In this document: piece after piece, positions 2,196 through 41,427 of the stretch | Layout of the letters: every line of letters begins with the position of its first letter | Numbering within the stretch: the stretch's first letter is position 1 | Source: Nitrospira sp. | GTDB lineage: Bacteria > UBA10199 > SBBF01 | DNA: 42,298 nucleotides | NCBI GenBank assembly: GCA_005240075.1 | Contig: SBBF01000034.1 | Coordinates: forward strand, 1-42,298 | Reading direction: 5' to 3' | Translations under genes and position numbers: made by a program | Notes under the pieces: generated by a model | Database searches by the model: none | What the model saw: only the letters and a program-made list of their open reading frames with translations | What the model was told of the DNA's origin: nothing

Positions 2196-3920
2196 TTAAA
2201 CTGTTTTTTTCCGAACAACTCCCATTCCGGCAAGACCAGACAACATCAAGAGAACCAGAAAACTTAAAGTCTGGCTGTCCGGCCGACGGGTGGTCAGATC
2301 ACAGCCACAACCGGCGCTGGCTGATGAGCCCTCGGGTTCACTAATGTCGCAAATCAGAGTTCCATCCAGATACTCTTCCGATTCGGTGGAAACATCGGTT
2401 CCATCGCAATCATCGTCAGTGTCATTATCGCAAATTTCAATTGCTGATGGATTGATTTCTTCCTTCGTATCATCGCAATCGCCGGCATTTTCCGAAAGGC
2501 CGTCGCCGTCGTCATCCACATTTGGCGAACCGCTGCACCCTTCATCGATTTTGAGATCGCAGTCTTGGTCGATCGCATCCGAGGTGCAGGTTGATACATC
2601 GCTGTCGTCGGTGCAGGAACCGCACAATTCACCCGCACCTGGATAGATGGTCGCATCGGTGTCATCGCAGTCGCCGTCTTCCACGGTTACACCGTCATGG
2701 TCGTTGTCGGTCCCGCAACTGGGGCTTAAGGAACAATCGGAATCGTCGCAATCAATACCCCCATCCCCATCATCGTCCAAAAGATCGTCGCAATCGTTTT
2801 CCGAAACAGGACAGGCATCGGTATTCGCATCACAATCGGAATCCTCACAATCGGTATATCCATCACCATCGTTATCGGTATCGTCATCACAAATCGTTTC
2901 GGTTGTAGTCGCCGCACAAGCACTGTCAGCGGCGCAATCATCGGTGTCGTCGCAATCGGTGTATCCATCGCCATCGTTGTCCAGAGTGTCCGAACAATAA
3001 CCGACTTCCGTGTCGCTGGTGCAAAAATCGGTTGGATCGGTGGCACCGTCGCAGTTGTTGTCGATCCCATCGTCGCAAACCTCAGTAATGCTGGGGTTAA
3101 TATCGACGTTGCTATCATCACAATCGCCGCCGTACGAGGCATAACCAGAGGGTAAAGCACAATCGGTCGTGGTATTGTCATCCAGACCATAACCATCTCC
3201 ATCGGCATCCAGGTAATAGGTGATCGTCGTTAAACCTTCATCAATTGAGCCATCGCAGTCGTTGTCCAGGCCGTCACAAATTTCCAGGTTATCGCAATCA
3301 TCATCCGGTTCGCCGTCTTTTCCACCTTCTACGTCACTTTCAATGGTCACATCGCCAGCGTTTTTTCGGCAATCACTCCAAAAATCCTCTTCCGAAATAC
3401 CGTTTAGTTTGATGGTTAAATTTCTGAAATAGACATCGTATGTTCCCTCTTCACATTCAAAGGGATTGGTGCCTGAATCAAGCCCGGAAGCATCAATCAC
3501 CACATTTCCATAATCCCCAGCCGTTGCGAGCGCCTCAAGATAATCGGCCTCATAGGTCACATCATCCGTACTGGCAATGTCACCTGACCAATTTCCAATG
3601 ACCAGCGTCTTTTTTGCATTGCTCAGAGTGAGAGCGCTTCTGAGAATAATCTCATTCACATCATTCGCGTAACCAGCCTCTTCCGTTGCAAAGATTATCA
3701 CCTGATCAAAATAATCATCATCCCCCGGATCAGAATCAGGAGGGGTGCAGTTGGAACCGGCATCGTTGCTGTAAACTTTACTGATTTTGTATCGAAGACT
3801 CCCGCCATTGGAGCTTGAATCAGATTGAGTGGTGACCAAACAATAGCCAGCCAAAGACTCCGCTATTCCAGCAAACAGCAAGAGTGTCATAACGGTCAGA
3901 GTAAAAATATGTTTTTTCAT
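2196..3920 (-). CDS. MopE-repeat secreted/surface protein with MYXO-CTERM-like tail (copy 1)
   Basis: This 574-residue exported protein begins with a signal peptide (about residues 1-24, MKKHIFTLTVMTLLLFAG). A roughly 190-residue N-terminal domain follows, opening with a GSLRYKI motif similar to the CSLREA-type start of beta-helix surface proteins. The rest consists of at least six Asp/Cys-rich MopE-type repeats of the kind DxDGDGYxxxxxDCDD...ICDDxxDNDCDG, which are thought to bind calcium or other metals. The end has GCGC, a hydrophobic segment and RKK, the layout of MYXO-CTERM sorting tails. The start has a good ribosome-binding site (GGGAG, about 7 bases away). A promoter-like element lies at 3952-3978. 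It is a paralogue of its upstream neighbour. Confidence 0.85.
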   Translation of the reverse strand: MKKHIFTLTVMTLLLFAGIAESLAGYCLVTTQSDSSSNGGSLRYKISKVYSNDAGSNCTPPDSDPGDDDYFDQVIIFATEEAGYANDVNEIILRSALTLSNAKKTLVIGNWSGDIASTDDVTYEADYLEALATAGDYGNVVIDASGLDSGTNPFECEEGTYDVYFRNLTIKLNGISEEDFWSDCRKNAGDVTIESDVEGGKDGEPDDDCDNLEICDGLDNDCDGSIDEGLTTITYYLDADGDGYGLDDNTTTDCALPSGYASYGGDCDDSNVDINPSITEVCDDGIDNNCDGATDPTDFCTSDTEVGYCSDTLDNDGDGYTDCDDTDDCAADSACAATTTETICDDDTDNDGDGYTDCEDSDCDANTDACPVSENDCDDLLDDDGDGGIDCDDSDCSLSPSCGTDNDHDGVTVEDGDCDDTDATIYPGAGELCGSCTDDSDVSTCTSDAIDQDCDLKIDEGCSGSPNVDDDGDGLSENAGDCDDTKEEINPSAIEICDNDTDDDCDGTDVSTESEEYLDGTLICDISEPEGSSASAGCGCDLTTRRPDSQTLSFLVLLMLSGLAGMGVVRKKTV

Positions 3921-3951
3921 TTTATTCTCCCTATTCCCCTTTCTTTAACCT

Positions 3952-3978
3952 TTATCGGCCAAACCAAAAAAAAGTTGC
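3952..3978 (-). promoter_or_regulatory. Regulon promoter element P1 (sigma-28/ECF-like)
   Basis: On the minus strand this reads GCAACTTT, 11 bp, GCCGATAA. It is an exact match to the window's shared element in both half-sites and in spacing. The predicted transcription start is near 3945, about 25 bases before the ATG of the first MopE gene. The -35 half overlaps the stop codon of the neighbouring MopE gene, so the element sits at the gene boundary. Confidence 0.75.
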
Positions 3979-5729
3979 TAAAAATCTGTTTGTCTCCTCC
4001 GGACCCTCAACAAAAAAACCAAAGAAATGGCAACTAAGATGTTGAAGATAAAGACATTTTGAGAAGTTTTGTCTTCTCCATCATTCAACGAACAACCGGA
4101 GCCCCCTTCCAGCATAACGTCAAATTCATCCGGAACCTCCGTTTCCTGGCAGGTGATGGTATCTTCTCCGTCAATGACGTCGTCACAGTTGTTGTCGGTG
4201 CCATCCTCGCAAAGCTCAGTCGCCTCCGGACTGATGGAATCGTTGGAGTCGTCGCAGTCACCGCTGTTATCGGTATAGCCATCCGGCTGATCGCAAGCCT
4301 GGGCCGTGGAAGAATCGCTCCCGTAACCGTCTTCATCGGAGTCAATATACCAGGTGCTCCCCTCATCCGCGGAACCGTCACAATCGTTGTCCACTCCATC
4401 ACCGCAGGTTTCCGTCGCTTCGGGATTAATGGCAGAATCACCATCGTCGCAATCTTCGTTGTTATCGATATAACCTGAGGGGGTTTCGCAAGCCTCAACC
4501 GCCAGCGAACTATCGGCATCCCCATACCCATCGGCGTCACTATCAGGATAATAGATTGTCGGATCGCAGGCACAATCGTCATCGGCATCATCGGACAGCC
4601 CATCACAATCGTTGTCGGCACCGTCATCGCATAGTTCGGCCTCACCGGGGTTGACAGCGGAATCCGCATCATCACAATCCCCACCGGTTGTTACATAGTC
4701 GTCCGGCTGGGCGCACTCTGTGACCGCGGCCGATTCGTCCCCATAACCATCGCCGTCATTGTCGGCATAATAGGTCGACTCGGTCAGGTCTTCATCTGTT
4801 TGACCATCGCAATCATCATCCTTGTCGTTGCAGGTTTCAGTTGCACCGGGGTTGACTGACGCATCGTTGTCATCACAGTCCCCTTCGTCAGTCGTATAGC
4901 CATCGCCGTCGTTGTCTTCTTCTTCCCCATCTTTAGTGTCACTTGTTTGATCAGAGCCATCACAGTCCTGATCAATCCCATCATCAAGAATTTCATCAGC
5001 TCCGGGATAAATACTGGCATCTTCATCATCACAATCCTGGTCATCCACATAGCCATCCTGATCGTTGTCACAATGAGCTGAAGGATCATCAAGCAAATCA
5101 TCCGTTGTTCCCACCACATCGCCATAACAGACATAATTGTCACCGGCATCGTACAGACAATCGATAAAAAGATCGGTTTTGGAAAGGGCGTTTGTTTGAA
5201 CCACCAGATGACGAAAATAAACGTTGCTGCTCCCATCACAGGTAAAGGGATTCTCCCCGCTTGACAGATTGGATTTTCCGTCGATTAAAACCCGTCCATA
5301 ATCGCCGGCCGCATTGATCGCTGTGACATAGGCGCTGTTGGCGGTGTAATCATCGTAAGCGACCGAAGTGGTATCGGCCACAACATCCGGCGCCCAGTTT
5401 CCAATCACAATATTTTTAGAGCTATTTTGAAATTCAATCGGATTATTCAACTCAATGGCATTTACATTGTTGGCATAGCCAGCCTCCGAGGTGGCAAAAA
5501 TGACCACCTGTTCAAAAAAATCGTCATCTCCGGCGCTACTCCCGGAAGAAGGGGGGGTGCAATTGGAACCGCTGCCGGTATGATTGTAGGTTGTTTCTAT
5601 CTTATAACGAAGACTTCCACCATTAGAACCGCTGTCCGATTCGGTCGTTACCAAACAATAACCGGCCAGTGCCTCCAGACTGGCCGTTAATGAGAAACCA
5701 AGAACTGTGAATAACAAAAATCTTTTCAT
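3978..5729 (-). CDS. MopE-repeat secreted/surface protein with hydrophobic, Arg-rich C-terminal tail (copy 2)
   Basis: This is a paralogue of the protein at 2196-3920. A signal peptide (MKRFLLFTVLGFSLTASLEALA) is followed by the same GSLRYKI-type N-terminal domain and then five clear MopE repeats (DNDGDGY...DCDDxDxxxxPxAxExCxDxxDNDCDG). The tail has one Cys, a transmembrane segment and RVRRR, a sorting or anchoring tail. I place the start at 5729 because AAGGGA is well spaced from it; the ATG at 5738 (586 residues) lies inside that ribosome-binding site. Repeats of this type are often found in calcium-binding surface or adhesion proteins, though the actual ligand is not shown here. It is driven by element P2. 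Confidence 0.85.
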   Translation of the reverse strand: MKRFLLFTVLGFSLTASLEALAGYCLVTTESDSGSNGGSLRYKIETTYNHTGSGSNCTPPSSGSSAGDDDFFEQVVIFATSEAGYANNVNAIELNNPIEFQNSSKNIVIGNWAPDVVADTTSVAYDDYTANSAYVTAINAAGDYGRVLIDGKSNLSSGENPFTCDGSSNVYFRHLVVQTNALSKTDLFIDCLYDAGDNYVCYGDVVGTTDDLLDDPSAHCDNDQDGYVDDQDCDDEDASIYPGADEILDDGIDQDCDGSDQTSDTKDGEEEDNDGDGYTTDEGDCDDNDASVNPGATETCNDKDDDCDGQTDEDLTESTYYADNDGDGYGDESAAVTECAQPDDYVTTGGDCDDADSAVNPGEAELCDDGADNDCDGLSDDADDDCACDPTIYYPDSDADGYGDADSSLAVEACETPSGYIDNNEDCDDGDSAINPEATETCGDGVDNDCDGSADEGSTWYIDSDEDGYGSDSSTAQACDQPDGYTDNSGDCDDSNDSISPEATELCEDGTDNNCDDVIDGEDTITCQETEVPDEFDVMLEGGSGCSLNDGEDKTSQNVFIFNILVAISLVFLLRVRRRQTDF

Positions 5730-5751
5730 ATAATCCATCCCTTCATACCGG

Positions 5752-5778
5752 TTATCGGCCGATCTCCAAAAAAGTTGC
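5752..5778 (-). promoter_or_regulatory. Regulon promoter element P2 (sigma-28/ECF-like)
   Basis: The minus strand carries GCAACTTT, 11 bp, GCCGATAA. The predicted start is near 5745, giving a leader of only about 16 bases before the ATG at 5729. It is arranged back to back with element P3 in a 250-bp divergent spacer. Confidence 0.75.
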
Positions 5779-5894
5779 TAAAAATTTCTGATGAAGCGAT
5801 TTTTTTGTAAAGTGGAATGGGGAGACCGGGATGTGGGTTTTTTATAAAAAAGTGTAATAATTACAATAACGTAAAATAAAAAATGCTTTCGGAA

Positions 5895-5921
5895 GCAACT
5901 TTTATGATTTTCTGCCGATAA
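5895..5921 (+). promoter_or_regulatory. Regulon promoter element P3 (sigma-28/ECF-like)
   Basis: The plus strand carries GCAACTTT (5895-5902), an 11-bp spacer and GCCGATAA (5914-5921). It serves the POTRA/barrel gene at 5993. The rest of the 5739-5992 spacer is AT-rich with no gene visible. Confidence 0.75.
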
Positions 5922-5992
5922 TTAAGTGAGAGGAGTTACGGGGACAAAAAGGAGACTAAAGGTTAAACCGGGGTGGAAAACTGGGAGATCTT

Positions 5993-8458
5993 ATGTCTCG
6001 AATTGAAATTAATGGCAAGCGTTACGAGATTCTGGAAACTCCAGAAATCAATCCCGCCACAGGAAAAACGGAAGCTCAGTACGCCCCCATCACCGTTTCA
6101 TCCCCTGACGGCATCACCGGATTAGATATTCAAACCCATGACAGACCCTTTGAAGACGAAGTCTTTTTAAAAGTCGCCGGAAAATATGGCATAGCCCGCT
6201 TTGCCGCTTCCACCGATTTTCCAAAGCTCCCCCCCCATGCCGAAATGATCTTTGTCGACGATAAAAACCAGCAATGGGGAGGAACCGTCGAATATATCAA
6301 TGATGAATCAGAAGACGCTCAATACAAAGCAAGTCTTACTATCGATTTCGGCTATAATACAAACGGAAACTGGACTCCTGTGTCACGCGGATCCGAGGAT
6401 TTGACCAAAATTCGTCGGTTTGTCGCCAAATCGCTCGCCATTCAGGATGGGGTGATTTCAGCAGATGACTATGAAGGTTTCGAGTATGCAATGAATGGGG
6501 TTCTGATGTCACTGGGGAACAAATCATCTCTGGTGATCGGACCGGAAATCGAATTTGACGAGCATAAAGAATTCACTATCCGCTTTAAGATCTCCCCCCA
6601 AGCCAAAAAAATAGAGCCTGAAATTCGCTATGCCTCTCCCAGCGGTGTCGACATGCCCCAATTGATAAAAACCCAGCTTTCGGAGGAAATCGGTGCCTGC
6701 TTTAAGGAACCGGCCTCCTACAACAATCTCGTCAAGGGACTGGCTAAAGTTCGCAAAGAATTTGGAAAAAAAGACTCCTCCTACCTCGTTCAGGTCTGGG
6801 ATCAATCGATGGGGGGAGAGAGTCCGCTAACCCCTGTTTTCAAGCCGGATGGAACGCTGGTCATTCCCGTCAACGTCAAACCCAATTTTAAATCGATGAC
6901 CGTTCATATCCAAAAGTGCAACAACAATGGTGATCCGATCGATGAATTTTCGGTCAATCCAGCCAGCCTGGGAATCAAGCTTCATTATCCGCTCAACGAA
7001 AAAAATTTAGCGCGGAACGCCAAGCTGATTGAGGACTATTACGCCGATCAGCGTTACGTGGTTCAACCGGGCACCAAACAATTTGCAACAGAGGCCAATT
7101 CCGCCCCCATGGTCATTCGGATCATTCCCGCCCCTCAAGAACAGGATATTACTTTTGTCCGGAACGTCGGTCCTGAATTGGACAAAGCGGTTAAAATGTT
7201 TGACGACCCCCAGCATGATTATATCACCAACGCGGCGATCAAAAAGGGATCGGAAGAGTTAACCGCCTGGTACCGAGACAAGGGGTACATCCTTGAAAGT
7301 GATCTGCAGATGACATTTAAAGAAGGAAGACTCACCGTCACCTGCGAGGCGCTTAAACTTGATTCGTTTCAGATTGTGGGAAACGACCCGGAAACCCGGA
7401 AATGGTTGGAAGAAGGAATGAGGGAAGAAATACTAAAGGAATTTCCGACAAAGAAGGGGGATTATATTAATGCCAACGATTTCCAGGAAGCTCTCGCCCA
7501 AATTAAAGCCCGATTTCCCCTAAATATTAACTACGCCGGTCCATCAACCGATCCATCCACCAGCCAGATCATCACCAATGCCGACGGCGAAACCGTTATG
7601 GTTCTGAATCTCTCCCTGATCGGCAATCACGAATTAAAATGGGAAGTGGGAGCCGAAAATACCGGCATGAAAGCAAGTGTGGGTTACACACACACGTCAG
7701 ATAATGGGGTTATTTTCAGCGGTGGGCCTAAAGTAAGCGGCGTTCCCAGTTATACGGAGTTTGGCGCCAACGCCACGTTGGCCAAACCCTGGTTCAACGA
7801 TTCCGGCGCCACCGCCGATGGGCATGGAGGGGTCAGCTGGCTCCCCTGGTTTAATGATTACAATAGCCAATCGGTCGGCGTTGGAATGGCTCAACCGATC
7901 GGCAATCCAAACTCCCCCTGGTCTTTTATTTATGGGATTGATTTTGAACGGATCGCCAGTGAAATCCAAAAACCTGATTTCTGGCTGAAGCCTGGCGCTG
8001 GAATTCGCTACTCCAAAAACGGCTGGATTTTTGAAATCAAGGCAGGGCCCCGTGTGAGCATCAATGGCCATGTATATGCTGAGCTCTCCATCAAGGTCAG
8101 TAAAAAACAATATCTCGGCAAAAAGAAGATGGTTTATTTAAAAGCACAAGCGGAGGCGGTATTGCGCGCAGGGCATAATCCTCAGGACATTACTTCCCTT
8201 TCCATGACCAACCTGGGGCCGTTTCAGGCCTATTTCAAGGCGAAGATGGGGATTCTCTGTCACCTTTTCCCCCTCAATAAACGTCAGGGAAACCCAATGG
8301 GGGAACTGGCTATTGGTCTGGGAGTTGGCTTTACTACCCACAGCATGATCAGCGGCGTCCCCGAAGGGATTGCCGGCATTATGATCGAAGGGCCAATCGA
8401 AGTTTTGGGGGGCGTTGCGGTCAATCCGGTGCTGGGAGTGACTGGGTCGGTGATGTAA
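5993..8458 (+). CDS. POTRA plus beta-barrel-like protein lacking a signal peptide
   Basis: This is an 821-residue protein. The N-terminal half (about 1-385) is of unknown type. At about 390-455 and 456-520 are two POTRA-like units: the first contains AWYRDKGYI, typical of Omp85/BamA POTRA domains, and the second starts LDSFQIVGND. From about 545 to the end, alternating polar and hydrophobic Gly/aromatic-rich strands suggest an Omp85-like barrel. The N-terminus (MSRIEINGKRYEILETPEI) is hydrophilic, and no signal peptide can be added by an upstream start, because the GGGAG ribosome-binding site and the promoter (P3) are just before this ATG. A POTRA-barrel protein without a Sec signal is odd. 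It may be exported by another route, be assembled intracellularly, or only mimic the fold. Confidence 0.6.
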   Translation: MSRIEINGKRYEILETPEINPATGKTEAQYAPITVSSPDGITGLDIQTHDRPFEDEVFLKVAGKYGIARFAASTDFPKLPPHAEMIFVDDKNQQWGGTVEYINDESEDAQYKASLTIDFGYNTNGNWTPVSRGSEDLTKIRRFVAKSLAIQDGVISADDYEGFEYAMNGVLMSLGNKSSLVIGPEIEFDEHKEFTIRFKISPQAKKIEPEIRYASPSGVDMPQLIKTQLSEEIGACFKEPASYNNLVKGLAKVRKEFGKKDSSYLVQVWDQSMGGESPLTPVFKPDGTLVIPVNVKPNFKSMTVHIQKCNNNGDPIDEFSVNPASLGIKLHYPLNEKNLARNAKLIEDYYADQRYVVQPGTKQFATEANSAPMVIRIIPAPQEQDITFVRNVGPELDKAVKMFDDPQHDYITNAAIKKGSEELTAWYRDKGYILESDLQMTFKEGRLTVTCEALKLDSFQIVGNDPETRKWLEEGMREEILKEFPTKKGDYINANDFQEALAQIKARFPLNINYAGPSTDPSTSQIITNADGETVMVLNLSLIGNHELKWEVGAENTGMKASVGYTHTSDNGVIFSGGPKVSGVPSYTEFGANATLAKPWFNDSGATADGHGGVSWLPWFNDYNSQSVGVGMAQPIGNPNSPWSFIYGIDFERIASEIQKPDFWLKPGAGIRYSKNGWIFEIKAGPRVSINGHVYAELSIKVSKKQYLGKKKMVYLKAQAEAVLRAGHNPQDITSLSMTNLGPFQAYFKAKMGILCHLFPLNKRQGNPMGELAIGLGVGFTTHSMISGVPEGIAGIMIEGPIEVLGGVAVNPVLGVTGSVM

Positions 8459-8470
8459 TTATTTCTAAAC

Positions 8471-8581
8471 TCATCTATATCCCCTCCCTATTATAATCCC
8501 CTCCACCGACAGATCTTCATCGATATCCGGCCAGTGGATTCCTGTTCCCAGACCAAGTTGGCTGTGCGATTTGTAATCGTT
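8471..8581 (-). pseudogene. DUF2442 C-terminal remnant
   Basis: In the minus frame ending at the TGA at 8471-8473, the segment GTGIHWPDIDEDLSVEGI can be read, which matches the conserved end of DUF2442 proteins (GIHWPxxDEDLSxEGL). No N-terminal half or start is present upstream; the frame instead runs into the protease gene at 8620. It is a decayed fragment of a DUF2442 gene. Bases 8459-8620 hold nothing else that I recognise. Confidence 0.6.
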
Positions 8582-8619
8582 CTTGCGGGATAAAAAATGA
8601 AATTGGGAACCGCGGGGGA

Positions 8620-9045
8620 CTAACTTTTTTTCATCGGTCCGGTGCAAAGCGGCAAAAGGGGCCTGTCAGGCGACCGGGGATTGGGAAGAAGCTTTTTTTC
8701 AAGGGGGGATACATGCCAGTCCATCTCTTCCAGAGGAACAGCCCCCAGGAGAGGTTCGGCGCCATGGGGAAGCTCAATCACTCTCACCTGACAATTTCTC
8801 CCCTCCACTTGAACCTCAGCCATTCCAAAAACTCGGTAGAGATGCTGTCCTCCATCGGCCATACAAACAGGCACCTCACCGACAAATTCAAGCTTCAAGT
8901 CCTCAATCAAATCAGCAGGCAACGCCAATTCAGCCGCCCCGGTATCAACCAGGGCTTCACAAACAACGTCGATCCCCTGCTTTTCTTTGGGAAGAAAACG
9001 GTTCTGCCAGTTTTTGACTTTCAGCGGAATCCTGAAAACTCCCAT
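8620..9045 (-). CDS. Retropepsin-like (clan AA) aspartic protease
   Basis: This 141-residue protein carries the single-domain retropepsin pattern: ALVDTGAAELALP with the catalytic Asp-Thr-Gly near residue 33, and a later LLGAVPLEEMDW, like the PLLGxxxLExLG segment of bacterial clan AA proteases. Such proteins act as homodimers, each subunit giving one catalytic Asp. There is no signal peptide. The C-terminal tail after residue 115 is Pro/Lys-rich and not conserved-looking. A DUF2442 remnant follows on the same strand. Its role is unknown; in other genomes such genes travel with small toxin-antitoxin-like modules. Confidence 0.7.
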   Translation of the reverse strand: MGVFRIPLKVKNWQNRFLPKEKQGIDVVCEALVDTGAAELALPADLIEDLKLEFVGEVPVCMADGGQHLYRVFGMAEVQVEGRNCQVRVIELPHGAEPLLGAVPLEEMDWHVSPLEKKLLPNPRSPDRPLLPLCTGPMKKS

Positions 9046-9156
9046 AAAATTTTAGACTCACATTACTAACCAATTGATTTTATTAACAAAATTATAATTA
9101 TTTATCTATCAATCTCCGTTAATATCTAATGTATCGAAAAAAAAATAAAAAACCAA

Positions 9157-9183
9157 GCAACTTTTTTTGAATCCTGCCGATAA
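9157..9183 (+). promoter_or_regulatory. Regulon promoter element P4 (sigma-28/ECF-like)
   Basis: The plus strand carries GCAACTTT (9157-9164), 11 bp, GCCGATAA (9176-9183). It lies about 150 bases before the glycine-rich protein gene at 9335, so the leader is long and contains a copy of dispersed repeat A. Confidence 0.72.
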
Positions 9184-9207
9184 TAACCATGAAGCCACCG
9201 ATCGAAG

Positions 9208-9275
9208 AATCTGGCTTTGCCAGTTCTGAGCCCGGGGGCTCCCTTCATCGCGAGTGAAACGAGCGGGAAGGTATA
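9208..9275 (+). repeat. Dispersed intergenic repeat A, copy 1
   Basis: This approximately 68-bp segment contains the stem CTGGC/GCCAG, then TTCATCGCGAG and GAGCGGGAAGGTAT. It is highly similar to the reverse complement of 17626-17698. Here it lies in the leader between promoter element P4 and the gene at 9335. Confidence 0.7.
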
Positions 9276-9334
9276 GTAAAGATAAAACACCGTTGGGGTG
9301 GAAAGTTTTTTTAAATAAATAGGAGGTAATGATT

Positions 9335-11212
9335 ATGTCAGCTTCAACAACATCAGCAACCGGAACAGGGACACCAGCAACATCTGATACTACAGCTTCT
9401 CCCACACCAGCTTCGGCAACACCGGCTTCGGTAACATCAGTCAGTGTGACTCCTGAAGCCTCATTTGGTTTTAACGTTTGGAAAACGGGAGCGGGAGGAC
9501 AGAGCGCTTATTCTGGACCAACGGGATCCGGAGGGGTCAAAGTGGTATGGAAAGATCCTTCCAGGAAGGTTAACCCCTATTTCAGAGCAAGGGTCGTAGG
9601 CGGCGCGGCCTCTAATGATATCGAAAATCAAACTCCTGCGAAAGATGCAGAACGAGTGGAAGTGAGCGACGAATCTTCAAGCGGAGCCGAAGCGGGAGAA
9701 GATCCTTTTGGCAATGATATCAGCGCCGAAAGTGGCGGCGAAAATATCAACAATATTGGTGCCGAAAGAAACACCTTCAACCGTTTTGGCGGCGAGCTGG
9801 AAGGAGGGATCGAACATCGGTTGGCTGACGGCACCAAGGGAACAACCGTGGCTTCTGGTGGAATTTATGGTGAAGCGGGCAAAGCTTTTGGAGTGGCCAA
9901 GGTTAATTCTTACTATGATGGCAGTCAAAACCTGGGAATTTATTTTGGTGCCGGATTGCGCCTTGGTCTTAGCCATATTTTTAAGCCTAAAAAAACAGGG
10001 GGCCTGGAAATATTTATTGGAGGTGAATTGAGCGGTGGTGGTAGAGTGGTCACCTACTCCGTGCCTGGCAATGAAGGGGGAGGAAACCCTGCTGTTGGTG
10101 GCGTCTTTGGTGGGGCTGTTGTTGGCGGAATCCGCTTGGGCCGGAAAGGAACCGGCGCTGCTGATGGAACCCCGAAAGAGGCTCAACCAGGCACTCTAAC
10201 ACAAGCGGACCTGACTAAACTGCAAAAACTGGTCGCTGCGGCCTGGATCAAGGATAGAACCGGTGCTGTGATCAACAGCCCAGGGGCCAGCTATTTTGAA
10301 ATCGATTTCCCTGACACGCAAGATATCAAAGACGCTACAGGAAGAACTATCGATAAAATCACCTTTACCTGGGATCCAACCAAATCGGCCTGGGTAAGCC
10401 AGGTTTATGTGAAGGACAATGCCACCCCTGTAACCGATTCAGGATTCCCGGCTGAACAAAAATCAATTGCCGACATGGTTCAATCGTTGGAACGGGTGAT
10501 TTACAACCTGGTTCTGCTGAATTCAGGCGAGGCAACAAAAACAATCAGTGGCTTGGGAACTTACGAAACCCCCGCTTCTTTTACGGTCTTTAAAGACCAG
10601 GAGGCCCATTTAGGATTTGTCACCTCTCCTACAGCGTATGAGGCGATCATCCGGATTGCCGGACAGGATGTCCATAAGGTGCAAATCCCGGCAGGGAACC
10701 AAAAGACTGAAATTGTAGTCCCCAAGGATAAACTGCCGGCCAGCAATCTAGTCATCGATCGTCCTTTCCCGGCCAGCATCCGGAACAGAAATCAGGGAGG
10801 AGTCGAGTTGGCGTTTGATTACAAAGTTCAATCCGCAGCCCCCCCGGCGCCTCTTTACACCTTCACGGGCATTTCTGGCAACAGCTCTGCCAACGGCAAA
10901 GGAACAGCGTCGATCTCATTTACCGGCACATTGCCTGCTGGTGTCACTGTGGGGGTCACTCCAACCGACCTGATGCCCGGTGATTGGGTAAGTGTGTCAG
11001 GAAACACCATCACCGTGAAATATAATGTTCCGACTGACGGCAAGAGTGTTACCTTGCATGTCTACAGCGGTACAAACGAGCTCTATACCTTTACGGTGAC
11101 GAATAGGAAGAGTGGAACTGCTGGAACTGGAACTGGTGGAACTGTTGGAAGTGGAACTGGAACTGGTGGAACTGCTGGAAGTAGTGGGGGTGGAGGAACA
11201 GGCGGCTGGTAA
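9335..11212 (+). CDS. Glycine-rich, barrel-like protein with Ig-like domain and no signal peptide
   Basis: This protein of about 625 residues begins at the ATG at 9335, which lies 8 bases after a perfect AGGAGG; the ATG at 9329 is too close to it. The first 40 residues are Ser/Thr/Ala/Pro-rich and disordered, not a signal peptide. Residues of about 45-290 alternate Gly with hydrophobic and aromatic residues (IYFGAGLRLGLSHIF, LEIFIGGELSGGG), which looks like outer-membrane beta-strands. Residues of about 500-590 resemble an Ig-like beta-sandwich, and the end is a Gly/Thr-rich repeat (GTGTGG type). No family is recognised. It is driven by P4 and followed after 42 bases by the 366-residue gene, probably one operon. 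It may be a surface or self-assembling structural protein. Confidence 0.6.
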   Translation: MSASTTSATGTGTPATSDTTASPTPASATPASVTSVSVTPEASFGFNVWKTGAGGQSAYSGPTGSGGVKVVWKDPSRKVNPYFRARVVGGAASNDIENQTPAKDAERVEVSDESSSGAEAGEDPFGNDISAESGGENINNIGAERNTFNRFGGELEGGIEHRLADGTKGTTVASGGIYGEAGKAFGVAKVNSYYDGSQNLGIYFGAGLRLGLSHIFKPKKTGGLEIFIGGELSGGGRVVTYSVPGNEGGGNPAVGGVFGGAVVGGIRLGRKGTGAADGTPKEAQPGTLTQADLTKLQKLVAAAWIKDRTGAVINSPGASYFEIDFPDTQDIKDATGRTIDKITFTWDPTKSAWVSQVYVKDNATPVTDSGFPAEQKSIADMVQSLERVIYNLVLLNSGEATKTISGLGTYETPASFTVFKDQEAHLGFVTSPTAYEAIIRIAGQDVHKVQIPAGNQKTEIVVPKDKLPASNLVIDRPFPASIRNRNQGGVELAFDYKVQSAAPPAPLYTFTGISGNSSANGKGTASISFTGTLPAGVTVGVTPTDLMPGDWVSVSGNTITVKYNVPTDGKSVTLHVYSGTNELYTFTVTNRKSGTAGTGTGGTVGSGTGTGGTAGSSGGGGTGGW

Positions 11213-11254
11213 ATCATCAGCTGGAAATTTAATTATTGAAAGGAGAATAAAATC

Positions 11255-12355
11255 ATGCCCACACCTACTCAACCAATTACGACAGCATCCTTCAAGATGG
11301 ATACCATCATGGAAATTGAAGGATTAGGAAAGTATGAAGGCCAGGGTTTTGATGACGGTACTGCTGAAGGAGGTTTTTTTAGGAAACTAGGAGATGCACC
11401 AAACGGTGGAAAAACGGCAGGTCTTTACATATCAGATGACATGGACTGCAGGGCTTATGACCGATTTGCTCAAGGTTTCCATCAGATGCTTAGTCGTAAA
11501 ACAAAAGGATATCTCAACAAACTTCCCGACGATATCGAGCTATTTTATACAGCTATCATGGCAGGTCAGCTCTCTTGCGCACAAAGAGAAGAAGAAGAGG
11601 GTCAAAAAGTGGAAAACGTTTTGATCAAGCGGACTGTTGATTATGATTTAAATGAATACAATAACGACTCTTGTCAACTGGAAGTTAGTACACTCAAGAA
11701 TGGCAACACTCAAATTACCATGCAACTGTCTCCTGAAGGGGATGGCATGAGCGATCCCAATTATTGGGAGGGGCACGGCAATAAATGGATCATAACTGTT
11801 TCAAGAGCCGGAAGAATTGTTGATTTGCAAATTGATACGACAACAGGTTATGCGAAAATCCCTACTAATTATGGAGAAGCACCCCGGGGCATTTTCAGTG
11901 TGGCACAAATTTATGAAGAAGGAAATGTGGGCCCGAGAGGAAGGTCTGAGAACACCTTTACAGGATTAATGTTATCGAATGGAGTCAAGAAGACTCCCGA
12001 AGAAATCTATGACAGACTGAGACAGATTTTGGATGAACTGGTTAAAAGAGAAGGTTTTGAGGGTTGGTATGGACCGGATACACCAAAACTGACAATAGGA
12101 GAAACAACAATTCTTGTTCGCATTCTTTCAAAAATGCCCCCAGCTTCCTCAACACCTTCTGCAGCACCTTCTACCGAACCACCTGCCGCTCCTGTTGCAC
12201 CACACGCTCCTGATACAACTGCTCCCGCAACTGAACCTCCTCCAGCGGCCGCGAGTGAACAACCTGCTCCCCCTCCTCCGCCAGCCGGCAAAGAGCAGAC
12301 GGTCTCCATTGATTTGGGAGATGAAGGGATGCCAGCAGCTCCTGTAGGAGAGTGA
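11255..12355 (+). CDS. Unknown 366-residue protein with Pro/Ala-rich C-terminus
   Basis: The start ATG is preceded by GAAAGGAG at good spacing. There is no signal peptide; the first 15 residues are Pro/Thr-rich. Residues of about 20-290 form an acidic globular region with no family I recognise. Residues of about 292-345 are an Ala/Pro/Thr-rich linker ending in a short acidic tail (VSIDLGDEG). It lies 42 bases after the glycine-rich barrel-like gene and should share its promoter. The shared lack of a Sec signal and the low-complexity ends suggest the two proteins belong to the same system. Function unknown. Confidence 0.55.
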   Translation: MPTPTQPITTASFKMDTIMEIEGLGKYEGQGFDDGTAEGGFFRKLGDAPNGGKTAGLYISDDMDCRAYDRFAQGFHQMLSRKTKGYLNKLPDDIELFYTAIMAGQLSCAQREEEEGQKVENVLIKRTVDYDLNEYNNDSCQLEVSTLKNGNTQITMQLSPEGDGMSDPNYWEGHGNKWIITVSRAGRIVDLQIDTTTGYAKIPTNYGEAPRGIFSVAQIYEEGNVGPRGRSENTFTGLMLSNGVKKTPEEIYDRLRQILDELVKREGFEGWYGPDTPKLTIGETTILVRILSKMPPASSTPSAAPSTEPPAAPVAPHAPDTTAPATEPPPAAASEQPAPPPPPAGKEQTVSIDLGDEGMPAAPVGE

Positions 12356-12418
12356 TTTTACTACATTGTCTATTTTCAAGGGTTGCTGATAATTTCTTTT
12401 CTTGTTAACATTCTGATT

Positions 12419-12658
12419 ATGCCAGAGATATCCCGTTTTTTGGGAATGGTCATTGCCATTTATTACAGAGATCATGGCCCGGCTCATTTTCATGTTAAAT
12501 ATGGCAACCACGAGGCATCCATTGCAATTGAAACCCTGGAAGTTTTGGAGGGTTCTCTCCCTCAAAGGGTTTTCGGACTTGTGCTAGAATGGGCTTTTCA
12601 GCACCGAAAAGAGCTGGGAAAACTGGGTTCTCGCCAAAATGGGGAAACCACTCAATAA
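12419..12658 (+). CDS. DUF4160 family protein
   Basis: This 79-residue protein starts MPEISRFLGMVIAIYYRDH, the conserved opening of DUF4160, followed by the HFHVKYG segment. I choose the ATG at 12419 because family members begin with MPxIS; the in-frame TTG at 12383 would add an unrelated hydrophobic stretch. DUF4160 genes are commonly next to DUF2442 genes, as here (33-base gap), and the pair is often suspected to be a toxin-antitoxin-like module. This role is an inference. Confidence 0.75.
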   Translation: MPEISRFLGMVIAIYYRDHGPAHFHVKYGNHEASIAIETLEVLEGSLPQRVFGLVLEWAFQHRKELGKLGSRQNGETTQ

Positions 12659-12691
12659 AATAGCCCCGTTGATTTAAGAAGGAGGAAAACG

Positions 12692-12967
12692 ATGCACGCT
12701 GTAAAAAAAGTCGAATACCTTAAAGATTACAAACTATGCATCACTTTTGAAGACCGTTCCTGCAAGGAAGTTGATTTGCAAAATTACCTTGACGGGGAAG
12801 TTTTTCAACCCTTGAAAAATCCCGATTATTTCAAGACAGCCAAGGTGCATCCTGAACTGGAAACCATCTATTGGGAGAACGGGGCTGACCTGGCGCCTGA
12901 GTTTCTTTACGAAATAGGAAAAAATTTTGACGAGGGGAAAAAGCTCCGCGAAGGGGGAGTTCGGTAA
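12692..12967 (+). CDS. DUF2442 family protein
   Basis: This 91-residue protein follows the DUF2442 layout: a short N-terminal strand region, LCITFEDRSCKEVDL, a central FQPLKNPDYFKTAKVHPE and IYWENGADLAPEFLYE. The ribosome-binding site GAAGGAGG is near the ATG. It is partner to the DUF4160 gene just upstream. A decayed second DUF2442 fragment lies at 8471-8581, so the family has had more than one copy here. Confidence 0.8.
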   Translation: MHAVKKVEYLKDYKLCITFEDRSCKEVDLQNYLDGEVFQPLKNPDYFKTAKVHPELETIYWENGADLAPEFLYEIGKNFDEGKKLREGGVR

Positions 12968-14672: not shown

Positions 14673-15860
14673 TTAGATTTTTGTCCAATAAGCCGCGCGG
14701 CGCCCCAAAGCGCTGACAGCATTGCGTCTCCCCACACTGAATTCGTGAGGACCGGAAGTTCCTGATGGAGACCATCGCTGGGGTTTGCGATTGCCCGATC
14801 CACGACCTCCTCCTCCTCTTTTGGGATCGGGCTCTGTTGTAGCCTCAGCCCGCTCATCCAAATTAACAGCCGGAGGGGGAACCGTTGTTCCCTTTTCCAA
14901 CTGTTGTAAAACCACCCCGGTTACAAAAGCCATGGAGGTAGCGGCCGAGTGAGCGGTCCGATAATCCATGTCCGGTTGTCGTTCCTGAGCTGTTGCATAA
15001 GCCCCAATGGTTTGAGCTGACGCTCCCATTTCGGTTGCAAAGATAACGGTATCTCCCGGTCTCTGTGCCGGAACCGCTCCAAGCCCGATTCCTTGAGGAG
15101 GTGCCATAACCGCCGGCATACTCTGTTGCAGATAAAGGTGGGAAATCGTGTGGTAGACCCCCCCTTCCCCGTAAGGAAAGCGGACAATCACCGACCCATG
15201 TCCAAGTCTCCGACGGAGCTCTCCGGAATCAACAAGAACCTGCAACCCCCGTGCCATCCCGGTATAAAGTCGGGCGATCGGAAAGCTTTGGTTTTCCAAC
15301 CACCATCCCGGATATTCTTTGGCGTTAAAAAAACCCTCAACAACAGGGTCATCCAAAAAGCGCGGGGTAACGGCAACAAACTCGTTCCCACTTCTTTTGA
15401 AACCGGTCTTGACAAAACCGGGAAAAGCAACCTCCAGAACATTCTGGATCGCCCAGTCAGTCGTCATCACCAAACCTCCTGCTTCGACAAAGGGGGCTAA
15501 CAGTCGAGCCTTGTCGGCGGGAAATGCTCCACTGCAATTCACAAAAACAACCCTGGCCTGGGCCAGCAAGTCAGGATTCAAGTCATCAGGATAAACCCTT
15601 TCATGCGCCATCTGGGCCGCTTCCAAAACAAGATGGATATGATCAAATTGCCCATCCACCACCAGCAATTGAGGAGGTTTGATTCTTTCCCAAAGAGCGG
15701 TCCGTTGAGGTCGGGCATCGGCTATTTTTTCACGAAGCAACGTTCCCGACAGAGTGTAGGCTGTCTCCATGCGGGACTCCCCCGGGGCCCCCCTTTCCTC
15801 TTTATAAAGCCTCCCCCCCTGAGCTGGATCAAAAATCCGTCGACCTTGTATTTCTGGCAT
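14673..15860 (-). CDS. Unknown 395-residue protein with a possible class I amidotransferase/ThuA-like fold
   Basis: I place the start at the ATG at 15860, which has AAGGAG seven bases upstream; the longer frame to 15908 would run through the promoter element P5. A central region (about residues 70-240) has alternating strands and helices (QARVVFVNCSGAF, then FVEAGGLVMTTDWA), resembling ThuA or class I amidotransferase-like folds, but no catalytic Cys-His pair is clear. The C-terminal 80 residues are basic and low-complexity (a KRGGGGRGSG stretch). There is no signal peptide. It separates guaB from guaA, which are usually adjacent. Function unknown. Confidence 0.55.
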   Translation of the reverse strand: MPEIQGRRIFDPAQGGRLYKEERGAPGESRMETAYTLSGTLLREKIADARPQRTALWERIKPPQLLVVDGQFDHIHLVLEAAQMAHERVYPDDLNPDLLAQARVVFVNCSGAFPADKARLLAPFVEAGGLVMTTDWAIQNVLEVAFPGFVKTGFKRSGNEFVAVTPRFLDDPVVEGFFNAKEYPGWWLENQSFPIARLYTGMARGLQVLVDSGELRRRLGHGSVIVRFPYGEGGVYHTISHLYLQQSMPAVMAPPQGIGLGAVPAQRPGDTVIFATEMGASAQTIGAYATAQERQPDMDYRTAHSAATSMAFVTGVVLQQLEKGTTVPPPAVNLDERAEATTEPDPKRGGGGRGSGNRKPQRWSPSGTSGPHEFSVGRRNAVSALGRRAAYWTKI

Positions 15861-15891
15861 AACAAGCTCCTTTTCTTGTATTGATAATCCC

Positions 15892-15918
15892 TTTTCGGCA
15901 GGATTCAAAAAAAGTTGC
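15892..15918 (-). promoter_or_regulatory. Regulon promoter element P5 (sigma-28/ECF-like)
   Basis: The minus strand carries GCAACTTT, 11 bp, GCCGAAAA. It has one difference from the other copies in the -10 half and identical spacing. The predicted start is near 15885, about 25 bases before the chosen ATG at 15860. It could also feed guaA downstream. Confidence 0.68.
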
Positions 15919-16015
15919 TAACTTTTAAAAATTATCTGCCCATAATTGTGGGCCCTAAAATTGTACCTGTCTCGACAAAAGTTATACGTTGTAATCTATT
16001 CATGAACGTATAACT

Positions 16016-40522: not shown

Positions 40523-41248
40523 TCACTTGCATAGAAAGATGTCCTCCGGATAGTCATCCAGCGGGTTGGTGCCTGCAAGGCTATCCCTGTTCATGATGAG
40601 TAGAGCAGCCCCCCTGACGTTGTCAGGGTCCATTATGCGGGCTTCACGACAGAGCTTGGCGTAATAATCAACGGCTGTTTGATCGCTTATAAATTCGTCG
40701 AGCGCTTCCTGAACTCTTATTCTCGCTTCTTCGGCAATTTTAAAATTTTTCTCCTCTTTGGGAACGTTAAACTGCTTTCTTGAAAAGTCCTTTTCTTCAG
40801 ATCTGTCTGGAACATCTGGAGTACATTGAAAAAATAAACTATCCCGCTCCAAGCCGCTAATGACATCCCGATTCGACCGTAAATAAAACGACAAACTCAT
40901 TAAAAAATCCAACGCCACTTGGGCATCTTCTTCCGTCACTTCGCCATCAGTATTGGAGCAGACATCTGGTTCGGGCTCCAGTGGCCTGTTAAAGGGGGGG
41001 CATTCGCCAAAATAAAGCGTTTGAGGTGTGAGGTGTGAGTAAGCGGCAATGCCGAGCATTTCCATCCATTCCGAACAGGACAATTCCACGCCAAAAATGT
41101 CAAACAACTCTGAATCATCAATAAAATGGTCGGCATTCTGGTCCAACAGATCCACGACTGCCGCAAAACCATCGGGGCTCAACTCCAGGACGGGCTGAAA
41201 TTCTTGACATAAATCACTGACTGCAACAGAAGTTAAAGGGGGCGCCAT
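40523..41248 (-). CDS. EF-hand-containing protein in the P-element regulon
   Basis: This 241-residue protein has a canonical EF-hand loop at residues 36-47 (DQNADHFIDDSE) and a second, imperfect dockerin/EF-like stretch near 94-107 (DVCSNTDGEVTEED). The C-terminal half is helical with no recognised family. There is no signal peptide. Its start lies in the last of three identical 25-bp units, each carrying AAAAGGA and an ATG, and its promoter is P6. Calcium binding is likely for the first loop; the function is unknown. Confidence 0.6.
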   Translation of the reverse strand: MAPPLTSVAVSDLCQEFQPVLELSPDGFAAVVDLLDQNADHFIDDSELFDIFGVELSCSEWMEMLGIAAYSHLTPQTLYFGECPPFNRPLEPEPDVCSNTDGEVTEEDAQVALDFLMSLSFYLRSNRDVISGLERDSLFFQCTPDVPDRSEEKDFSRKQFNVPKEEKNFKIAEEARIRVQEALDEFISDQTAVDYYAKLCREARIMDPDNVRGAALLIMNRDSLAGTNPLDDYPEDIFLCK

Positions 41249-41318: not shown

Positions 41319-41328
41319 ATACTCCCTA

Positions 41329-41355
41329 TTATCGGCATTTGTAAAAAAAAGTTTC
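41329..41355 (-). promoter_or_regulatory. Regulon promoter element P6 (sigma-28/ECF-like)
   Basis: The minus strand carries GAAACTTT, 11 bp, GCCGATAA. It has one mismatch to GCAACTTT and identical spacing. The predicted start is near 41322, just upstream of the tandem ribosome-binding-site units. Confidence 0.65.
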
Positions 41356-41427
41356 GTCAAAAAATATTTTTTTATTGAATCACTTATTTAACAGTCATTC
41401 CCGTATGTTACAATAACAAACCGTCTT

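What the first reader, a model, noticed from the sequence alone, without database searches (positions are those of the whole stretch)
5993..12355. Barrel-like and structural proteins with no signal peptide, controlled by the same promoter element
The 821-residue POTRA/barrel-like protein and the roughly 625-residue glycine-rich barrel-like protein would be expected to carry Sec signals, yet their well-supported starts (strong ribosome-binding sites) give hydrophilic N-termini. The companion 366-residue protein and the 395-residue protein at 14673 also lack signals. The first 40 residues of several are disordered and Ser/Thr/Pro-rich, as in type III (flagellar) substrates. With a sigma-28-like promoter, export through the flagellar or a related type III machine, or assembly of an intracellular barrel-based structure, becomes a testable idea.
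Basis: inference. Interest (0 to 1): 0.75.

Follow-up and report, generated by a model that had tools for sequence, protein, structure and literature searches.

The report
Injectisome sigma-28 regulon, signal-less Omp85-like protein
An uncultured bacterium carries, inside its type III (injection machine) gene cluster, a flagellar-type sigma factor whose matching promoter stands in front of about 40 genes, including an Omp85-like membrane protein with no secretion signal, so these proteins are good candidates for cargo of the injection machine.

Summary
The 821-aa protein has no possible Sec signal (only 11 hydrophilic codons of frame upstream; both relatives lack one too). It has POTRA domains, all its significant fold matches are Omp85/BamA proteins, and its C-terminus is barrel-like; the genome's true BamA does have a signal. 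The 625/627-aa protein is weakly barrel-like; the 366- and 395-aa proteins are not.

The promoter is real: GCAACTTT-N11-GCCGATAA has the sigma-28 spacing and -10. It occurs 45 times genome-wide (0 in the reversed control); 41 copies lie within 270 nt upstream of a gene (12.8% by chance). The genome has no detected flagellin; both FHIPEP proteins are SctV-type; its only FliA-family sigma lies in an injectisome-type operon, with clear orthologues in 42 of 46 class genomes.

Best reading: a type III-linked sigma-28 regulon whose signal-less members are candidate injected proteins. Export is inferred, not shown. Against it: 22% of regulon proteins have Sec-like starts (same as background), no SctC secretin was found, N-terminal Ser/Pro enrichment is modest, and one relative (G004) has many promoter copies without a detected orthologue of this sigma. 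The regulon also holds a full eukaryotic-type acetyl-CoA carboxylase.

The parts
5894..5922 (+). sigma-28-type promoter element, exact match, 70 nt before the 821-aa gene
5993..8458 (+). 821-aa signal-less Omp85-like protein: N-terminal region about 1-190, POTRA-like array about 209-545, barrel-like C-terminus about 546-821
7424..7549 (+). Pfam POTRA hit, residues 478-519
9156..9184 (+). sigma-28-type promoter element, exact match, 150 nt before the ATG at 9335
9335..11212 (+). 625-aa (627 from 9329) signal-less, Ser/Thr/Pro-rich N-terminus, probable eight-strand barrel-like segment 35-269; paralogue L064:13307-14968 also carries the exact promoter
11255..12355 (+). 366-aa signal-less protein with Pro-rich C-terminus, probably co-transcribed with the 625-aa gene; no Pfam family, not barrel-like
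15891..15919 (-). sigma-28-type promoter element, two mismatches, 30 nt before the 395-aa gene
14673..15860 (-). 395-aa signal-less protein, no Pfam family, not barrel-like
5751..5779 (-). sigma-28-type promoter element, two mismatches, divergent from the one at 5894
3978..5738 (-). 586-aa protein with MopE metal-binding repeats and a Sec-like signal: a regulon member that is not type III-like
3951..3979 (-). sigma-28-type promoter element, two mismatches
2196..3920 (-). 574-aa MopE-repeat protein with a Sec-like signal
41328..41356 (-). sigma-28-type promoter element, two mismatches
40523..41248 (-). 241-aa signal-less protein with EF-hand-like motifs, 79 nt after the promoter

Best explanation
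The machine is built from other promoters; sigma-28 then switches on cargo genes, as FliA does for flagellin, perhaps after export of an anti-sigma factor (not identified). The signal-less proteins at 5993, 9335, 11255 and 14673 are proposed type III substrates. The 821-aa one is an Omp85-like POTRA-barrel protein that would leave the cell unfolded through the type III channel and act outside, most simply by inserting into a membrane of a target cell. Shown: promoter, regulon size, the sigma and its type III location, no detected flagellin, no Sec signals, POTRA/Omp85-like fold. Inferred: that this sigma reads this promoter, that the proteins are exported, that they reach another cell, and what they do there.
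For: 45 promoter copies, 0 in the reversed control; 41/45 within 270 nt upstream of a same-strand ORF against 12.8% by chance; same -10 and spacing as the sigma-28 consensus TAAAGTTT-n11-GCCGATAA. The only FliA/WhiG-family sigma found is followed by FliG-like, SctL, SctN and SctO genes; clear orthologues in 42 of 46 class genomes, in the same operon position. SctV-type FHIPEP, no flagellin. G006, G009 and G012 have one SctV-like FHIPEP and one sigma but 20, 68 and 48 promoter copies. The 904-aa homologue in G006 keeps the promoter with one mismatch 91 nt upstream and also lacks a signal. Regulon proteins are long and, where signal-less, Ser/Pro-rich and Lys/Arg-poor at the N-terminus. The 821-aa family occurs in 2 of 46 class genomes. 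The genome's own BamA has a Sec signal.
Against: Sec-like starts are as common in the regulon as in background (9/41 against 88/407). N-terminal enrichment is not significant in G009/G012. No SctC secretin: the two secretins found score as GspD and PilQ. G004 has 42 promoter copies but no detected orthologue of this sigma, only a distant flagellar-type one; G008, G013, G014 and G018 have the sigma but 6-13 copies. A dnaG-like gene lies behind one copy. Barrel models have low confidence. No export experiment.
Confidence: 0.55

Rival explanations
1. The sigma-28 regulon is a general late or life-stage regulon (surface proteins, enzymes, unknowns), and its signal-less members, including the 821-aa protein, stay inside the producing cell or form an unknown intracellular structure.
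For: Mixed content: Sec-signalled MopE and LysM proteins, an acetyl-CoA carboxylase, metallophosphatases; Sec-like rate equals background.
Against: POTRA plus barrel proteins have no known cytoplasmic role; the sigma is encoded in the type III operon class-wide; N-terminal Ser/Pro enrichment in this genome.
Confidence: 0.27
2. The four proteins are exported, but by another route that needs no N-terminal Sec signal (type I, type VI or another system).
For: Glycine-rich C-terminus of the 625-aa protein would suit type I export; other exporters were not searched for.
Against: No type I, VI or IX signature in their Pfam scans; co-regulation points to the type III sigma.
Confidence: 0.1
3. The element is read by a different sigma or regulator, and its link with the type III operon is coincidental.
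For: No copy of the element in the apparatus contigs examined; G004 has many copies without a detected orthologue of this sigma.
Against: Same -10 and spacing as the sigma-28 consensus; only one FliA-family sigma in this genome, the others being RpoD-, RpoH- and ECF-like.
Confidence: 0.1
4. The start of the 821-aa protein is mis-called and a Sec signal lies upstream.
For: Omp85 proteins normally carry Sec signals, as this genome's BamA does.
Against: Only 11 hydrophilic codons of open frame upstream; the same in two homologues from another genome.
Confidence: 0.02

Closest known systems
Flagellar FliA (sigma-28) late-gene regulon with FlgM export checkpoint
   Same: FliA/WhiG-family sigma; same -10 GCCGATAA and same N11 spacing; targets separate from apparatus genes
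   Different: -35 is GCAACTTT instead of TAAAGTTT; the sigma sits in an injectisome-type operon; no flagellin; targets are mostly large unknown proteins; no FlgM identified
Chlamydia trachomatis sigma-28 and type III system
   Same: An organism with a type III system and a FliA-type sigma; a flagellum-like sigma-28/anti-sigma secretion checkpoint has been speculated there (PMC10597470)
   Different: That paper speaks of two genes regulated by chlamydial sigma-28 (hctB, tsp); here about 40 genes, and the sigma gene lies inside the type III operon
HrpL regulon of Pseudomonas syringae
   Same: A sigma factor with its own promoter box drives a type III effector regulon that also holds non-effector genes (PMC3879358 and PMC4544800, abstracts)
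   Different: HrpL is an ECF sigma (from memory) and also drives the apparatus genes; here it is FliA-family and no copy was found at the apparatus contigs examined
Secretin-less Myxo NF-T3SS / Myxococcus needleless T3SS*
   Same: Injectisome-type sorting platform and export apparatus without a recognised secretin (PMC3459982, PMC12075869)
   Different: Here an SctI-like gene lies next to the sigma gene, and a second SctV contig has translocator-like genes
Omp85 / BamA superfamily
   Same: POTRA domains plus C-terminal barrel-like segment; all significant fold matches are Omp85
   Different: No signal peptide, about 190 extra N-terminal residues, barrel segment of only about 275 residues, no Omp85-barrel Pfam or BamA NCBIfam hit

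Membership tests
Omp85 superfamily (821-aa protein) | POTRA domains | tested here: met
   Pfam PF07244 E=3.9e-5 over its cut-off; POTRA-only structures among the significant Foldseek hits. The two homologues gave no POTRA hit in Pfam.
Omp85 superfamily (821-aa protein) | C-terminal 16-strand Omp85 barrel | tested here: inconclusive
   Strand alternation z=3.8, but pLDDT below 50 there, no PF01103 match to this gene in the genome search, and no RGF-type motif seen by eye
Omp85 superfamily (821-aa protein) | Sec signal peptide (bacterial members) | tested here: not met
   the true BamA of this genome has one
FliA/WhiG sigma factor (C94) | FliA/WhiG family model | tested here: inconclusive
   Best family TIGR02479, E=5.7e-41, but 140.7 bits against a cut-off of 189.6
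Sigma-28 promoter | -10 GCCGATAA and N11 spacing | tested here: met
Sigma-28 promoter | -35 TAAAGTTT | tested here: not met
   GCAACTTT, 5 of 8 positions the same
Injectisome (NF-T3SS) | SctV rather than FlhA | tested here: met
   Two copies over the SctV cut-off and under the FlhA cut-off
Injectisome (NF-T3SS) | SctJ, SctL, SctN, SctR, SctT | tested here: met
   SctJ, SctL and SctN in the own genome; SctR (over its cut-off) and SctT/FliR (under both) in relatives
Injectisome (NF-T3SS) | SctC secretin | tested here: not met
   Two secretins in the own genome, best as GspD (over its cut-off) and PilQ (just under); both far under the SctC cut-off
Injectisome (NF-T3SS) | SctI inner rod | tested here: inconclusive
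   Family next to the sigma gene in relatives; one member matches PF17001 at E=0.007, under the cut-off
Type III effector (window proteins) | No Sec signal, type III-like N-terminus | tested here: inconclusive
   No Sec signals; composition statistics support it only modestly; no dedicated predictor available
Type III effector (window proteins) | Type III-dependent export | not testable with these tools
   Needs an experiment

The most novel reading that the evidence does not exclude
An injectisome with its own built-in sigma-28 that times a regulon of about 40 genes, conserved across much of a bacterial class, and delivers among others an Omp85-type barrel protein that inserts into a membrane of another cell: a type III-delivered membrane-protein insertase or pore.
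Probability: 0.3. Interest if true: 0.92.

Novelty: new variant of a known kind. Interest (0 to 1): 0.72.

Why it matters
It gives a sequence handle (a 29-bp promoter) for listing candidate cargo of a little-studied type III system in an uncultured class. It ties a flagellar-type sigma directly to an injectisome operon, making testable the idea, so far speculative in Chlamydia (PMC10597470), that an injectisome can use the flagellar sigma-28 checkpoint. A signal-less Omp85-like protein would be an unusual cargo, and the eukaryotic-type acetyl-CoA carboxylase in the same regulon hints at dealings with eukaryotic cells.

Tried and rejected
Flagellar export: rejected for this genome, no flagellin and no FlhA-type FHIPEP. 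Mis-called start: rejected, no upstream frame in three homologues. Barrel nature of the 366- and 395-aa proteins: not supported. Promoter in the apparatus contigs examined (L081, L082, L083, L087): no copy with 4 or fewer mismatches. Anti-sigma factor: small ORFs of about 90-125 aa lie just upstream of the sigma gene in several relatives but look divergent and were not assigned; in the own genome that stretch of C94 shows no clear ORF. RNA family in the 150-nt leader of the 625-aa gene: none in Rfam, fold z only -1.8. Profile search of solved structures: BamA was the top hit for the 821-aa family but at E=0.18; nothing for the 625-aa family. The whole genome was not available as a file, so gene statistics use the contigs around the promoters plus a few others, called with a simple ORF caller of my own; its start choices are approximate. 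N-terminal composition in G009/G012: same direction, not significant. Literature: only open-access papers were searched.
Full report
Observation. The four ORFs and their starts are as described. The 821-aa protein cannot hide a Sec signal: the frame upstream holds 11 hydrophilic codons, and two homologues (904 and 898 aa, 28% identity) in genome G006, identified as Deltaproteobacteria bacterium RIFCSPHIGHO2_02_FULL_40_28, also begin hydrophilic with no room upstream. The genome's true BamA (L220, NCBIfam BamA 650 bits) has an evident hydrophobic signal, so the contrast holds within one genome.

Fold. Pfam finds a POTRA domain at residues 478-519. AlphaFold2 with only three sequences gives low confidence overall (pLDDT 39.6), but POTRA-like units at about 209-379 reach block means of up to 74. 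Foldseek on this weak model returns 32 PDB matches at E<=0.001, all Omp85/BamA/Toc75 (best 1.2e-6), with low TM-scores because domain placement is not resolved. Residues 546-821 show alternating hydrophobicity (z=3.8; relatives 3.6 and 3.7; BamA barrel 2.3; GuaA -1.8). I call it Omp85-like; the barrel is probable, not proven. The 625-aa protein has eight long predicted strands in a pLDDT-35 model, z=2.0 (paralogue 4.0), and no significant fold match. The 366- and 395-aa proteins are not barrel-like.

Promoter. AGCAACTTTT-N9-TGCCGATAAT occurs 45 times in the 1.96-Mb genome with up to 3 mismatches and 0 times when read backwards. Written as GCAACTTT-N11-GCCGATAA it has the spacing and -10 of the E. 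coli sigma-28 consensus TAAAGTTT-n11-GCCGATAA. 41 of 45 copies lie within 270 nt upstream of a same-strand ORF; random positions do so 12.8% of the time. The window holds 6 copies against 1 expected (p=5e-4). So the shared element is a genome-wide regulon, and it recurs across the class: 20-68 copies in G001-G006, G009, G010 and G012, 6-15 in G007, G008, G013, G014 and G018, reversed control 0-1.

Which machine. There is no flagellin hit. Two FHIPEP proteins score as SctV, not FlhA. The sigma70 region-4 search gave RpoD-, RpoH- and ECF-like factors and one FliA/WhiG-family sigma, on contig C94, followed by FliG-like, FliH/SctL, FliI/SctN and FliJ/SctO genes. Clear orthologues of this sigma (52-69% identity) occur in 42 of 46 class genomes, the own included; the four without are G004, G023, G024 and G040. 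In the relatives' loci the sigma lies between SctJ plus a 150-aa gene and an SctI-like gene followed by sorting-platform and export genes. Some relatives (G004, G007, G010, G028) have a further FHIPEP of higher, flagellar-like score with a second, distant sigma nearby. G006, G009 and G012 have one SctV-like FHIPEP and one sigma only, yet 20, 68 and 48 promoter copies. So the regulon goes with the type III sigma. That this sigma reads this promoter is an inference from family and co-occurrence; G004 (42 copies, no detected orthologue) and G008, G013, G014, G018 (sigma present, few copies) do not fit neatly.

Cargo. For 41 first genes the median length is 574 aa against 301 in background (p=5e-5). 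Among those without Sec-like starts, Ser+Thr+Pro in residues 2-31 is 25.5% against 18.2% (p=0.002) and Lys+Arg 8.5% against 13.6% (p=9e-5). The excess of N-terminus over protein body is significant in this genome (p=0.002-0.02) but not in G009/G012 (p=0.10-0.34). Sec-like starts are 22% in both regulon and background, so the regulon also serves Sec-exported proteins. Of 30 regulon proteins scanned outside the window, 20 had no Pfam domain; the others include a eukaryotic-type acetyl-CoA carboxylase (ACC_central E=3e-134; 1703 bits to ACC1 chains), an acyltransferase, two metallophosphatase-like proteins, an AAA protein and a ChaN-like protein. The 821-aa family is found in 2 of 46 class genomes, a patchy pattern typical of cargo genes, and the 904-aa homologue keeps the promoter with one mismatch.

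Mechanism. Most likely the type III machine is made from other promoters (no copy of the element in the apparatus contigs examined), and the sigma then switches on cargo. The 821-aa protein would pass the type III channel unfolded and fold in a membrane beyond the cell. Open points: the outer-membrane exit (no SctC found; compare the Myxococcus needleless T3SS*), the anti-sigma, the target cell, and what the carboxylase and the others do. The class is probably GTDB UBA10199 (from memory, not tested); no held paper combines that name with type III secretion.

Verdict. Known kinds (sigma-28 late regulon, effector regulon, Omp85 fold) are combined in a way I did not find described in the papers searched; hence 'new variant of a known kind'.

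Noticed in passing
L068:1-7137 - (G000 contig C29): Regulon gene (promoter 50 nt upstream, two mismatches) for a signal-less protein of at least 2379 aa that is a full eukaryotic-type multidomain acetyl-CoA carboxylase, closest in the PDB to ACC1 chains.
   Followed up: partly
L083:549-1322 + and loci L164-L177: A FliA/WhiG-family sigma is embedded in the type III operon in nearly all genomes of the class, next to an SctI-like gene.
   Followed up: yes
L082:2021-13669 (G000 contig C56): Second SctV copy with coiled-coil, translocator-like genes nearby (one SseD-like, E=4e-6); SctV copies of similar score occur in G001, G003, G005 and G007.
   Followed up: partly
window 5993-8458 residues about 151-160; window 40523-41248; L037, L039, L191, L201, L204: EF-hand-like motif (DGxI-S/D-xxE) over-represented in regulon proteins: 11 of 86 against 7 of 407 background proteins (p=3e-5; motif chosen after seeing the proteins).
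   Followed up: partly
window 2196-5738: Two MopE-repeat proteins with Sec-like signals share the promoter; similar signal-bearing starts (A.YCxVTS...) occur behind the promoter in G009 and G012 (L191, L207, L214), so a Sec-exported family seems to be a conserved part of the regulon.
   Followed up: partly
window 12383-12967: Adjacent DUF4160 and DUF2442 genes after the cluster, a small pair that might be a toxin-antitoxin-like module.
   Followed up: no
window 8620-9045: Retropepsin-like aspartyl protease gene (PF13975, E=1.3e-6) on the minus strand between the 821- and 625-aa genes.
   Followed up: no
L062:15560-17317 -: A dnaG-like primase gene (by eye) lies 22 nt behind a two-mismatch copy of the promoter; either a chance copy or a housekeeping member of the regulon.
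   Followed up: no
L007, L012, L014, L015, L019: Several promoter copies lie about 90-130 nt from contig ends, as if repeated promoter or leader sequence broke the assembly.
   Followed up: no
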